Shown here piece after piece: positions 3,030-53,550 of a DNA stretch of 64,000 nt. The notes below the pieces were generated by a model that worked only from the letters and a program-made list of their open reading frames with translations, made no database searches and was not told the origin of the DNA. The stretch is from positions 2,790,001 through 2,854,000 of the forward strand of contig NZ_CP013862.1 in assembly GCF_001307805.1 (NCBI RefSeq), in the 5' to 3' direction. Every line of letters begins with the position of its first letter. The first letter of the stretch is position 1. Both the position numbers and the translations under genes were made by a program. Source of the DNA: Lentibacillus amyloliquefaciens. Lineage in GTDB: Bacteria; Bacillota; Bacilli; Bacillales; Amphibacillaceae.

Positions 3030-3043
3030 TGAAAGCGCATTCA
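3030..3043 (+). promoter_or_regulatory. cre-like site (CcpA)
   Basis: TGAAAGCGCATTCA differs from the cre consensus TGWAANCGNTNWCA at one position and is nearly palindromic. It lies 43 bp upstream of the HMG-CoA lyase start, so carbon catabolite control of this catabolic gene is plausible. Confidence 0.45.
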
Positions 3044-3085
3044 AATTTTTGCTGTTCGGGGTCTCATAATTTAAAAGGAGGGGTC

Positions 3086-8650: not shown

Positions 8651-8735
8651 CTTTATCCCGCATGTAAAGGACAGTAATCCGCCCAGGAACGGCGGTTAAC
8701 TGTCCCTAAATGTCCGATTCGTTCATCTCGAGGAT
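8651..8735. repeat. Dispersed intergenic repeat, copy B
   Basis: TCCCGCATGTAAAGGACAGT at 8657 leads into CCGCCCAGGAACGGCGG and TTAACTGTCCCTAAATGTCC. The same ordered blocks occur inside the element at 2717-2790 and, shortened, at 59528-59560. The GC-rich inverted repeat CCGCC/GGCGG suggests a folded REP-like unit. Confidence 0.6.
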
Positions 8736-8746
8736 TCAATTTATTT

Positions 8747-9628
8747 TCACTTCTCAATAAACATCTGTGTCCAGTAGTTGCCATCAGCTGAATACCCTAC
8801 GCCAATGTGAGTAAAGGATGCATCAAGGATATTTTCCCGGTGCTTTTCATTGTTCATCCAGGCATTCACGACCTGTCTCGGAGATTGCTGGTCTCTGGCA
8901 ATATTTTCTCCGGCTGATTCAAATGTCACATTGAATTCTTTCATCATGTTAAAGGGAGAGCCATAAGTTGGGCTTGTATGGGAAAAATAATTTTTTATCT
9001 GCATGTCTTCCGATTTCTTGCGCGCGACCCGACTCAATGGCTTGCTTGTTTTCAAGTCGGACAAGCCGTGCTGACTTCGTTTTTGATTCGTTAATTTAAT
9101 GACTTTAAAAGCATATTCGCCCATGGTCAGCTGGGAAGAAGGCTGCTTATTACTTTGTTCGTCCTGTGCTTGAGGGGTCTGGTTTGATTCCGGCACAGAT
9201 TGCTGTTCCGATTGATTGCCTGTATCTGCTTGATCTTCTCCCGTTTGATGCCGGGCTTCCGATTGATCCTCATCCGGCTGCAGCCTATTCTGCCTTTGCC
9301 GGTTTCGTTCCTGGATTTCTCGATCCTGAATTCGGCCGGGGTCTCTTGCATTTCCGCTGAGCGGTCCCCGGTTATGCGTTTGGCCATTAAACCCATCAAA
9401 GTCGTCATTCGGGTAGCCTTCCCGGAAACCGGAATTATTGTCAGTTCCTTCGTCAAACCCGATTTTTTGCGTGCCCGGACCTGCTCCATCACTGGATGAA
9501 TCTGTCCGTGTCGCAGAAATTGGAAGCTGGTTCTCATCCACATCCGTATGTGATTCATATTCCGGGCTGCATGCCGCCAGAAGCATAATGGCTGTTATCG
9601 GAATGAAGAGCGTTTTAATTAACTTCAT
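8747..9628 (-). CDS. CAP/SCP-domain lipoprotein (YkwD-like)
   Basis: A 293-residue exported protein. The lipobox LLAAC after a hydrophobic N terminus predicts lipid anchoring to the outer face of the membrane. Residues ~25-165 are a polar, low-complexity linker rich in Q, N, D, R and E. The C-terminal ~125 residues are a CAP domain: MTLTNQKR-like opening (KLTNQKRSQHGLSDL), YFSHTSPTYGSPFNMM, GENIA and HRENILDASFTHIGVGY, the standard order in bacterial YkwD proteins. Function of these proteins in bacilli is poorly known; spore or cell-wall roles have been suggested. Two short pieces of the linker coding region are copied into a nearby pseudogene. Confidence 0.88.
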   Translation of the reverse strand: MKLIKTLFIPITAIMLLAACSPEYESHTDVDENQLPISATRTDSSSDGAGPGTQKIGFDEGTDNNSGFREGYPNDDFDGFNGQTHNRGPLSGNARDPGRIQDREIQERNRQRQNRLQPDEDQSEARHQTGEDQADTGNQSEQQSVPESNQTPQAQDEQSNKQPSSQLTMGEYAFKVIKLTNQKRSQHGLSDLKTSKPLSRVARKKSEDMQIKNYFSHTSPTYGSPFNMMKEFNVTFESAGENIARDQQSPRQVVNAWMNNEKHRENILDASFTHIGVGYSADGNYWTQMFIEK

Positions 9629-9701
9629 CTGTTGACTCCTTTTTTGCTTAATTTTCCACCCCCTTGTGTAAGTTTATTGATGGGGATGTGTGGTATATCT
9701 T

Positions 9702-9886
9702 CTAAGGACCGCTTTCGGACAAGCCTTCCAGATCAACATTTTGCTCATGATTCATTTCATCAAGCGGGAAGATGGTTGCGCTGGTTTGATCAGAATTTAT
9801 TTCTTTTAAATAACAGGGAAACCGTGAAAATTTACGTTTATCATGGTGATGGAATTTATGATTTCCTGTGCGCGGTACCGATCCAT
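9702..9886 (-). pseudogene. sspH: Frameshifted small acid-soluble spore protein SspH
   Basis: ATG 9886 follows GAAAGGAG at good spacing and reads MDRYRAQEIINSITMINV, then NFHGFPV, after which the frame stops. Moving the frame by one base at about 9808-9814 (GTTATTTAAAA, where GTTTATTTAAAA would be in frame) continues as YLKEINSDQTSATIFPLDEM and NHEQNVDLEGLSESGP, stop at 9702. The conceptual 61-residue protein has the full SspH pattern (RAQEI, MINV, F-G-PVY, TA, PLDE). The span is 185 nt, one short of 62 codons. SspH belongs to the minor spore-core proteins made in the forespore. It is either a real 1-nt deletion or a sequencing error. Confidence 0.75.
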
Positions 9887-10136
9887 AAAATAACTCCTTT
9901 CAAATCAGCCTCACGTTTATTTTTTGCCGGCTGATAAGGAATATGCGAGGATGTATTAACCATTTTACAGATTGTTTTCACTGACGGATTAGCTTAAAAT
10001 TGGTGGCAGACTGTTAGTACGTTAAGGTGGTGCAGCTTATCGGTAGACTTGGTCTCTTTTTTTCAGGCCCGGGACAGACGTATTCAAATTCAGCATTTAT
10101 TGATCAGTATATAAATGATTTTGGCTGGTCACGCAC

Positions 10137-10192
10137 GGCAATCAATCGGATCAGCAATCTGTGCCGGAATCAAACCAGACCCCTCAAGCACA
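10137..10192 (+). repeat. Patch 1: 56-bp copy of the CAP-lipoprotein gene
   Basis: Matches the reverse complement of 9165-9220 with one mismatch in 56 bp. It fills the first internal gap of the MFS remnant. Confidence 0.9.
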
Positions 10193-10272
10193 CCTGGTTG
10201 CTCAATGGTTCGTGAAAAAAAGAGGCCGGGCATTCAGCTTCATGACAATGGGAAGCTTTATCAGTGCGATGT

Positions 10273-10336
10273 GAAACCGGCAAAAGCAGAATAGGCTGCA
10301 GCCGGATGAGGATCAATCGGAAGCCCGGCATCAAAC
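10273..10336 (+). repeat. Patch 2: 64-bp copy of the CAP-lipoprotein gene
   Basis: Matches the reverse complement of 9243-9306 with one mismatch in 64 bp. It fills the second gap of the MFS remnant. The two patches lie in the opposite order to their order in the CAP gene. Confidence 0.9.
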
Positions 10337-10472
10337 ACATTTTTCATAATTATACACCGGTGCTGCTCGCCTCACTCATATTTCCAATCATTGGGGTCAT
10401 TTGTGCTGTAACGGCACGACGACCGCAAAAGAGCAAGTTGCAAACAAACTAAACTAAAAGCGGTGATTGTGA

Positions 10473-11090
10473 ATGTTAAAAGATACCGGGGAGCGTGTCA
10501 TCCCCGAAAAGATGAAAGCAACAGATGAAATGCTTATGGAACATATGGCAAGGTATTATTTTGCTGTTGAATATGTTTATGGACGTGTGCTTGATATTGC
10601 CAGCGGGACGGGGTACGGCACACAGCTTCTTGCTAAAAAAAGAAAAGGAATTGTCGATGAGGTCGTCGGGGTTGATCTTGAGACGGAGGCGATAAAATAC
10701 GCAAAAGGGGCATACCACCATCCTAACGCCACGTTCATCGAAGGCGATGTCACAGACTCGGAACTGCCGGAAAAATTGGGACAGTTTGATTGCATCGTCA
10801 GCTTTGAAACGATTGAGCACATTGCGGACGAGGAGCAGTTTTTGGCTAATATTTATAATCTGTTGAAACCAGGCGGGAAGCTTATTCTGTCAACACCGTT
10901 TGGCAAAGGGCGCGGCAAGTTGTGCGGGTCGCCCTTTCATGTCCATCAGCTCTCTGTGGATGAGTTTATGGGGTTATTTCCTGATTATGCATCAGCGGTG
11001 TTTTACTTTCAGAAGGGCCCTCTGATTGAACCGGCTAATCGTACAGATGACCGGCATTTCCCCCTTGGAATTGCTGTTTGCCGGAAGTAG
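10473..11090 (+). CDS. Class I SAM-dependent methyltransferase
   Basis: A 205-residue Rossmann-fold methyltransferase. Motif I is VLDIASGTGYGTQLL (about residues 39-53), the acidic end of strand 2 is VVGVDLETEAI, motif II region is FIEGDVTD, then FDCIVSFETIEHI, and LLKPGGKLILSTPFG is the typical post-I/motif III segment. This is the UbiE/Methyltransf_11 type, whose substrate cannot be read from sequence. The ribosome site is weak (GCGGTGATTGTG). It is alone, and a five-unit 21-bp tandem array begins 22 bp after its stop, followed by a terminator. Confidence 0.8.
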   Translation: MLKDTGERVIPEKMKATDEMLMEHMARYYFAVEYVYGRVLDIASGTGYGTQLLAKKRKGIVDEVVGVDLETEAIKYAKGAYHHPNATFIEGDVTDSELPEKLGQFDCIVSFETIEHIADEEQFLANIYNLLKPGGKLILSTPFGKGRGKLCGSPFHVHQLSVDEFMGLFPDYASAVFYFQKGPLIEPANRTDDRHFPLGIAVCRK

Positions 11091-11111
11091 ATGCACTGCC
11101 AGGGGTGAAAT

Positions 11112-11216
11112 CCCGAAGTTCGAGTCAAAGTTCCCGAAGTTCACAGGCGAAACCCCGAAGTTCACGCAACAATTCCCGAAGTTCACAACTAAAATCCCGG
11201 AGTTTACAAATCCGAA
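11112..11216. repeat. Tandem array, five units of exactly 21 bp
   Basis: CCCGAAGTTC-type cores begin at 11112, 11133, 11154, 11175 and 11196 (the last as CCCGGAGTTT). The last ~10 bases of each unit vary. In one plus-strand frame it would read as a 7-residue repeat (FPKFT..), but no start with a ribosome site leads into it. It lies between the methyltransferase stop and a terminator. Confidence 0.9.
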
Positions 11217-53332: not shown

Positions 53333-53550
53333 TGAGCAAGAGCAGTATCAAAACGAGCGGGAATGTCACGATAACGAGCGACACGCCGGTGAAACCGAGC
53401 GGGAGCGTCCCCAGAACGAGCGACGCACCGGTTAAATCGAGCGGGACTGTCATCAGAACGAGCGGCATGCCGGTCAAATCGAGCAGGCGCGCCATCAGAA
53501 CGAGCGACAAACCTGTAAAATCGAGCGAGTATCACATCCTTAAATGCTAA
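53332..53550 (+). repeat. Tandem array, nine CGAGCG-phased units of 21 bp, within a 72-codon ORF
   Basis: CGAGCG begins at 53354, 53375, 53396, 53417, 53438, 53459, 53480, 53501 and 53522, exactly every 21 bp. A higher-order 42-bp unit alternates (A/C)CGAGCGRC and TCGAGCGGG. An ORF from ATG 53332, overlapping the SOD stop, reads through the array as 14-residue repeats of the TSDAPVKSSGTVIR type. No family matches, and the ORF has no ribosome site of its own, so it may be a by-product of the 21-bp (in-frame) period. Confidence 0.85.

What the first reader, a model, noticed from the sequence alone, without database searches (positions are those of the whole stretch)
10027..10452. MFS pseudogene whose deletions are plugged with short copies of the CAP-lipoprotein gene
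Two gaps in the MFS gene contain 56-bp and 64-bp copies of segments 9165-9220 and 9243-9306 (one mismatch each), in inverted orientation and swapped order. The donors are only 22 bp apart in the repeat-like linker of the CAP gene. This looks like templated insertion during break repair, with the neighbour used as template twice. I know of no standard bacterial element that does this.
Basis: seen in the sequence. Interest (0 to 1): 0.75.

Follow-up and report, generated by a model that had tools for sequence, protein, structure and literature searches.

The report
Broken transporter gene with neighbour patches
A salt-loving bacterium has a dead transporter gene in which two missing stretches are filled with short backward copies of the gene next door, most likely a scar of inaccurate DNA repair rather than a working element.

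Summary
Window 10137-10192 and 10273-10336 are inverted copies of 9165-9220 and 9243-9306, one mismatch each, found nowhere else in the one-contig 3.86 Mb genome. The closest relative held is Lentibacillus persicus, where the same neighbourhood carries an intact MFS transporter gene. Against it the window gene lost about 229 and 690 bp, replaced by 56 and 64 nt of CAP-gene sequence, and about 60 bp near its start in a plain deletion. None of 11 same-genus relatives matches the patches. P2 is CAP-native and moved from CAP to MFS; 48 of 56 nt of P1 lie in an insertion of the CAP linker absent from 9 relatives, so its direction is only probable. Microhomology at the four joins is 2, 0, 0, 0 nt, no more than random sites give (mean 0.69). 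Ku and LigD are encoded. Best reading: one recent, clustered illegitimate repair event in which short CAP fragments were captured by end joining; template switching and SPDIR-like annealing are rivals. It is a pseudogene scar of a known general kind, unusual in using one donor region twice.

The parts
8747..9628 (-). Donor gene: CAP-domain (YkwD-like) lipoprotein, 293 aa, intact
   Evidence: Open reading frame; PF00188 E 1.8e-21; orthologues in the genus
9243..9306 (-). Donor segment of patch P2, in the CAP linker; has a homologous stretch in the L. persicus CAP gene
9165..9220 (-). Donor segment of patch P1; 48 of its 56 nt lie in a 54-nt insertion (9173-9226) of the CAP linker found in none of 9 aligned relatives
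10014..10036 (+). Site of a third, unpatched deletion of about 60 bp over the start region
10037..10138 (+). MFS remnant 1 (N-terminal part), 87% identical to the L. persicus gene
10137..10192 (+). Patch P1: inverted copy of 9165-9220, one mismatch, in place of about 229 bp of MFS (GG at 10137-10138 shared with remnant 1)
10193..10272 (+). MFS remnant 2, 80 bp, 89% identical to the L. persicus gene
10273..10336 (+). Patch P2: inverted copy of 9243-9306, one mismatch, in place of about 690 bp of MFS
10337..10452 (+). MFS remnant 3 (C-terminal end with a stop at the orthologous place), 76% identical over 10339-10449

Best explanation
The MFS gene was destroyed in one recent, clustered illegitimate repair event. 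The region suffered breaks or gaps at several points; two missing stretches were closed with short double-stranded fragments of the CAP gene about 1 kb away, joined flush by non-homologous end joining (Ku/LigD), while the resident CAP gene stayed intact because the fragments came from another copy of the locus (sister chromosome or DNA of lysed siblings). Shown: the copies, the deletions, the order and orientation, the lack of microhomology beyond chance, the presence of Ku and LigD genes. Inferred: that it was one event, that the fragments were captured rather than synthesised, that Ku/LigD did it, and the source molecule.
For: Two donors 22 bp apart in a 3.86 Mb genome, same relative orientation, same target gene. 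A full-length gene in 7 of 11 same-genus relatives and no match to the patches in any of the 11. Join overlaps 2, 0, 0, 0 nt against a random mean of 0.69 (the side that needs the lost bases judged by eye from relatives); matches around the joins not enriched. Ku and an adjacent LigD with ligase and primase-polymerase domains. The swapped order excludes insertion of one contiguous donor piece (inference). The copies differ from the donors at 2 of 120 sites, and 92 remnant codons differ from L. persicus at 32 synonymously and at 10 by amino acid, so the loss looks recent.
Against: Capture of 56 and 64 bp from one 142-bp stretch needs local shattering of the donor, of which there is no direct sign. 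Flush joins are also what chance gives (0 nt in 56.5% of random pairs), so they do not point to Ku/LigD by themselves; and passages on LigD describe its polymerase domain as bridging ends through microhomologies. The lost MFS bases are known only from relatives (remnants are 76-89% identical to L. persicus), so short microhomologies could be hidden. The collections hold one genome per species, so the pre-event state of this species was not seen. No paper with such a capture was recognised in the listings (open-licence papers only).
Confidence: 0.45

Rival explanations
1. Serial template switching: a polymerase extending a broken or stalled MFS strand jumped to the opposite strand of the CAP gene, copied 56 nt, returned to MFS for 80 nt, jumped to CAP again for 64 nt and returned about 690 bp further on.
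For: The MFS-CAP-MFS-CAP-MFS alternation, the short tracts and the inverted template 1 kb away are what such a chain would give. It explains the intact donor and repeated use of one donor without a source of fragments.
Against: Four switches with overlaps 2, 0, 0, 0 nt, not above random; the MMBIR abstract read describes switching at microhomology.
Confidence: 0.28
2. Short-patch double illegitimate recombination: short single strands from the CAP gene annealed to single-stranded MFS DNA at a replication fork and were incorporated, replacing the resident DNA (the mechanism is recalled).
For: Substitution by short segments of intragenomic origin is the outcome named in the title of Harms et al. 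2016 (seen as a citation).
Against: As I recall, SPDIR needs microhomology at the joins, which is not seen beyond chance; two substitutions from neighbouring donors would need two strands. [quoted passage not shown] The paper itself is not held.
Confidence: 0.14
3. Reverse transcription of chimeric transcripts: an RT jumped between MFS and CAP mRNAs and the cDNA recombined into the chromosome.
For: The patches are in CAP mRNA sense within MFS mRNA sense; two RVT_1 matches over the cut-off are in the genome.
Against: Sense agreement has a one-half chance if it was one event; the RTs were not classified; no recombination of cDNA is shown.
Confidence: 0.03
4. Assembly chimera.
For: No independent assembly of this species was found. 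The one search aimed at it, with the frame 10264-10449, found nothing, but it did not list the window's own frame either, so it is weak.
Against: Each copy differs from its donor by a base, the deletions are flanked by normally diverged MFS sequence, and the genome is a single contig.
Confidence: 0.04

Closest known systems
[quoted passage not shown] Harms et al. 2016; cited in Acinetobacter baylyi papers)
   Same: Short segments of intragenomic DNA replace resident DNA in a bacterium
   Different: Two neighbouring donors used for one target, hundreds of bases lost, no microhomology beyond chance; details of SPDIR are recalled, the paper was not held
Ku/LigD non-homologous end joining with fragment capture
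   Same: Flush joins and deletions; both proteins encoded in this genome
   Different: Capture of two short fragments from one nearby gene was not recognised in the papers listed; involvement cannot be tested from sequence
Templated insertions by MMBIR (abstract) or polymerase theta (listing), eukaryotes
   Same: Short copies of nearby sequence at rearrangement joins
   Different: Bacterial; microhomology at the switch points is not seen beyond chance
Short-range template-switch mutations / quasipalindrome correction (listings)
   Same: Inverted copies from nearby sequence
   Different: About 1 kb apart, 56 and 64 nt long, with deletions of 229 and 690 bp

Membership tests
SPDIR | Resident DNA replaced by a short segment present elsewhere in the genome | tested here: met
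SPDIR | Microhomology at the joins (recalled) | tested here: not met
   2, 0, 0, 0 nt against random mean 0.69; no enrichment around the joins. L. persicus stands in for the lost bases
MMBIR / serial template switching | Copies of nearby sequence at the joins with the donor kept | tested here: met
MMBIR / serial template switching | Microhomology at switch points | tested here: not met
   with the same caveat
Ku/LigD end joining | Ku and LigD encoded | tested here: met
   PF02735 E 1.7e-57; LigD ligase and Prim-Pol domains
Ku/LigD end joining | Joins with little or no microhomology | tested here: inconclusive
   2, 0, 0, 0 nt; any random join would look the same
Ku/LigD end joining | Dependence on ku and ligD | not testable with these tools
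   Needs experiment
Diversity-generating retroelement | Adenine-specific changes in the copied repeat (recalled) | tested here: not met
   One mismatch per copy, in CAP sense one A to T and one G to A
Mobile element or dispersed repeat | Further dispersed copies or element ends | tested here: not met
   Only donor and patch in the genome at E 0.001; both donors lie in the CAP reading frame

The most novel reading that the evidence does not exclude
A single bacterial repair event chained five tracts (MFS, inverted CAP, MFS, inverted CAP, MFS) with flush joins: a prokaryotic counterpart of eukaryotic shattering-and-patching or polymerase-theta-like insertion, in a lineage with Ku and LigD.
Probability: 0.3. 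Interest if true: 0.6.

Novelty: new variant of a known kind. Interest (0 to 1): 0.42.

Why it matters
As far as I recall, complex illegitimate repair in bacteria is known mostly from selected laboratory events. A natural scar with its donor and intact relatives at hand gives exact tracts, order and joins, and suggests a genome-wide search for short gene-to-gene patches as a record of how often bacteria repair this way.

Tried and rejected
Reverse direction (MFS to CAP): rejected for P2, because the L. persicus CAP gene has a homologous stretch and none of 11 relatives matches P2 in its MFS gene. For P1 it is less certain: 9 of 9 aligned relatives' CAP proteins lack the segment. The P1 copy also carries 8 nt (CAAGCACA) that align to the CAP sequence next to the insertion, which favours CAP to MFS, but the gap placement is ambiguous because CAAGCA stands on both sides.

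One contiguous insertion of 9165-9306: rejected, the order is swapped and 80 bp of MFS lies between.

Dispersed repeat or mobile element: rejected, each segment is found at two places in the whole genome. Lost MFS pieces moved elsewhere in the genome: not found with the L. persicus gene as query (only the three remnants at E 0.001).

Frequent patching in this genome: a 454 kb sample (11.8% of the genome, window included) gave 46 repeat pairs of 30-200 bp at 90% identity or more and E 1e-6. Two are these patches. I looked at the surroundings of 8 places from four groups of the other 44: 5 of 8 overlap no open frame of 100 codons or more, 3 of 8 overlap one end of such a frame, one of which looks like a transposase by eye. 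The remaining pairs were not examined one by one; many share recurring coordinates, as dispersed repeats do. So other patches in the sample are not excluded, and the rest of the genome was not scanned in this way.

Patches at other MFS breaks: relatives G008 and G009 have truncated MFS genes that look like plain deletions, and no repeat pair at E 0.01 was seen in their fetched loci. In the same call four of the 11 stretches compared gave pairs: the window (the two patches), L066 and L071 (neighbouring or overlapping direct repeats) and L073 (one direct pair of 92 nt at 86%, 1.2 kb apart, not explained).

Same-species intact gene: not found. With the L. persicus MFS protein as query the listed hits are L. 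persicus itself and then 85% or less (best 120 of 181 listed; only the 8000 candidates sharing most words were scored).

Pfam on the two window frames over the remnants: no family.

Papers: PMC8116780 and PMC7192050 passages: Harms et al. 2016 was seen only as a reference and one sentence, and is not held. PMC5312590: passages, no useful statement. PMC8656161: passages. PMC8421209: abstract and outline. Ten paper searches showed no paper on a bacterial double patch like this, judged by listed titles and starts of abstracts.

Full report
What is there. The two inverted copies are real and at the stated places. The genome is a single contig of 3,858,284 bases; a search of it with window 9000-10500 finds each donor and each patch and nothing else at E 0.001. 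The named records found by a methyltransferase search are Lentibacillus persicus and L. kapialis. No tool named the window species; its size recalls L. amyloliquefaciens, from memory only.

Pre-event state. The L. persicus locus (G002, L066) has the same order: CAP gene on one strand, MFS gene and methyltransferase on the other. Its MFS gene is a 430-codon open frame (PF07690). Against it the window keeps three remnants: 10037-10138, 10194-10272 and 10339-10449 by BLAST. Between them 229 bp and 690 bp are missing, replaced by the 56 and 64 nt patches. A further deletion of about 60 bp around window 10035 removes the start region without a patch (length by eye).

Relatives. Of 11 same-genus genomes (E 1e-40), 7 have a near full-length match without stops, one has a single TGA inside, two are truncated (279 and 126 residues reached) and one has no match. 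None of the 11 matches the patch positions. The gene is thus damaged or missing in several members of the genus, but patched only here. In the two truncated relatives the breaks look like plain deletions.

Direction. The P2 donor aligns to the L. persicus CAP linker, so P2 went from CAP to MFS. Of the P1 donor, 48 of 56 nt lie in a 54-nt insertion (9173-9226) of the window's CAP linker that is absent from 9 of 9 aligned relatives and bordered by CAAGCA on both sides. The P1 copy includes 8 nt of CAP sequence beyond the insertion as aligned, so CAP to MFS is likely there too. The linker varies in length among the 9 relatives.

Joins. The overlap is 2 nt (GG) at the left end of P1 and 0 at the other three joins. 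The comparison of retained MFS with uncopied donor is exact; the comparison of copied donor with lost MFS uses relatives and was read by eye. Random pairs of sites from the window's MFS-methyltransferase stretch and the CAP gene give a mean of 0.69 nt, and 0 in 56.5% of draws. Matches within 5, 8 and 10 nt of the joins are not enriched against L. persicus (lowest P 0.21). One or two extra bases may sit at the right-hand joins (by eye).

Age. The copies differ from the donors at 2 of 120 positions. The P2 change is probably in the copy, since the donor base agrees with the one relative aligned, L. persicus; the P1 change cannot be polarised. In 92 remnant codons 32 differ synonymously and 10 by amino acid from L. 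persicus, 8 of the 10 in the C-terminal piece. The gene was thus probably functional until recently (inference).

Mechanism. Two donors 22 bp apart used in the same gene point to one event (inference). Flush joins, several nearby deletions, short blocks (56, 80, 64 bp) and the presence of Ku and LigD fit capture of small fragments during end joining. Against this stand the lack of any sign of a shattered donor, the fact that flush joins are also what chance gives, and that passages on LigD describe its polymerase domain as bridging ends by microhomologies. A chain of template switches explains the intact donor more simply but would be expected to leave microhomology (abstract). SPDIR lies between the two, and a review passage calls its natural rate insignificant. 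I put 0.45, 0.28 and 0.14 on these, together about 0.87 on illegitimate repair using the neighbour's sequence.

Control. In 454 kb of the same genome 46 short repeat pairs were listed. The two patches are the only ones I recognised as lying inside two unrelated genes, but only 8 places from four groups of the other 44 were looked at, and no other genome was scanned in this way.

Verdict. A real, well-defined repair scar in a pseudogene, unusual in using one donor region twice with flush joins; not an element and not a new kind of system.

Noticed in passing
window 9173-9226 (CAP linker): The CAP linker has a 54-nt in-frame insertion absent from 9 aligned relatives, bordered by CAAGCA on both sides; linker length varies among these relatives.
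   Followed up: partly
window 11104-11208: Short direct repeats with the core CCCGAAGTTC follow the methyltransferase gene; direct repeats also follow that gene in the L. persicus locus.
   Followed up: no
window 8657-8728: Intergenic repeat next to the CAP gene, with further copies at genome positions near 2907048 and 3534842.
   Followed up: partly
L068 (reverse complement) about 3038-3044 and L075 about 2093: Relatives G008 and G009 lost parts of the same MFS gene by what look like plain deletions, one running into the methyltransferase gene, the other apparently into the protease gene beyond it (the second by eye).
   Followed up: partly
L073 164-253 and 1358-1449: A direct pair of 92 nt, 86% identical, stands on either side of the CAP gene in relative G010.
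   Followed up: no
G000:C1:2788784-2788838 and 2857827-2857881: A 55-bp inverted pair 69 kb apart, one copy at the end of a frame that looks like a transposase by eye, the other alone: possibly a solitary insertion-sequence end.
   Followed up: no
window 53350-53527: Two direct copies of about 94 bp at 84-bp spacing, 81% identical.
   Followed up: no
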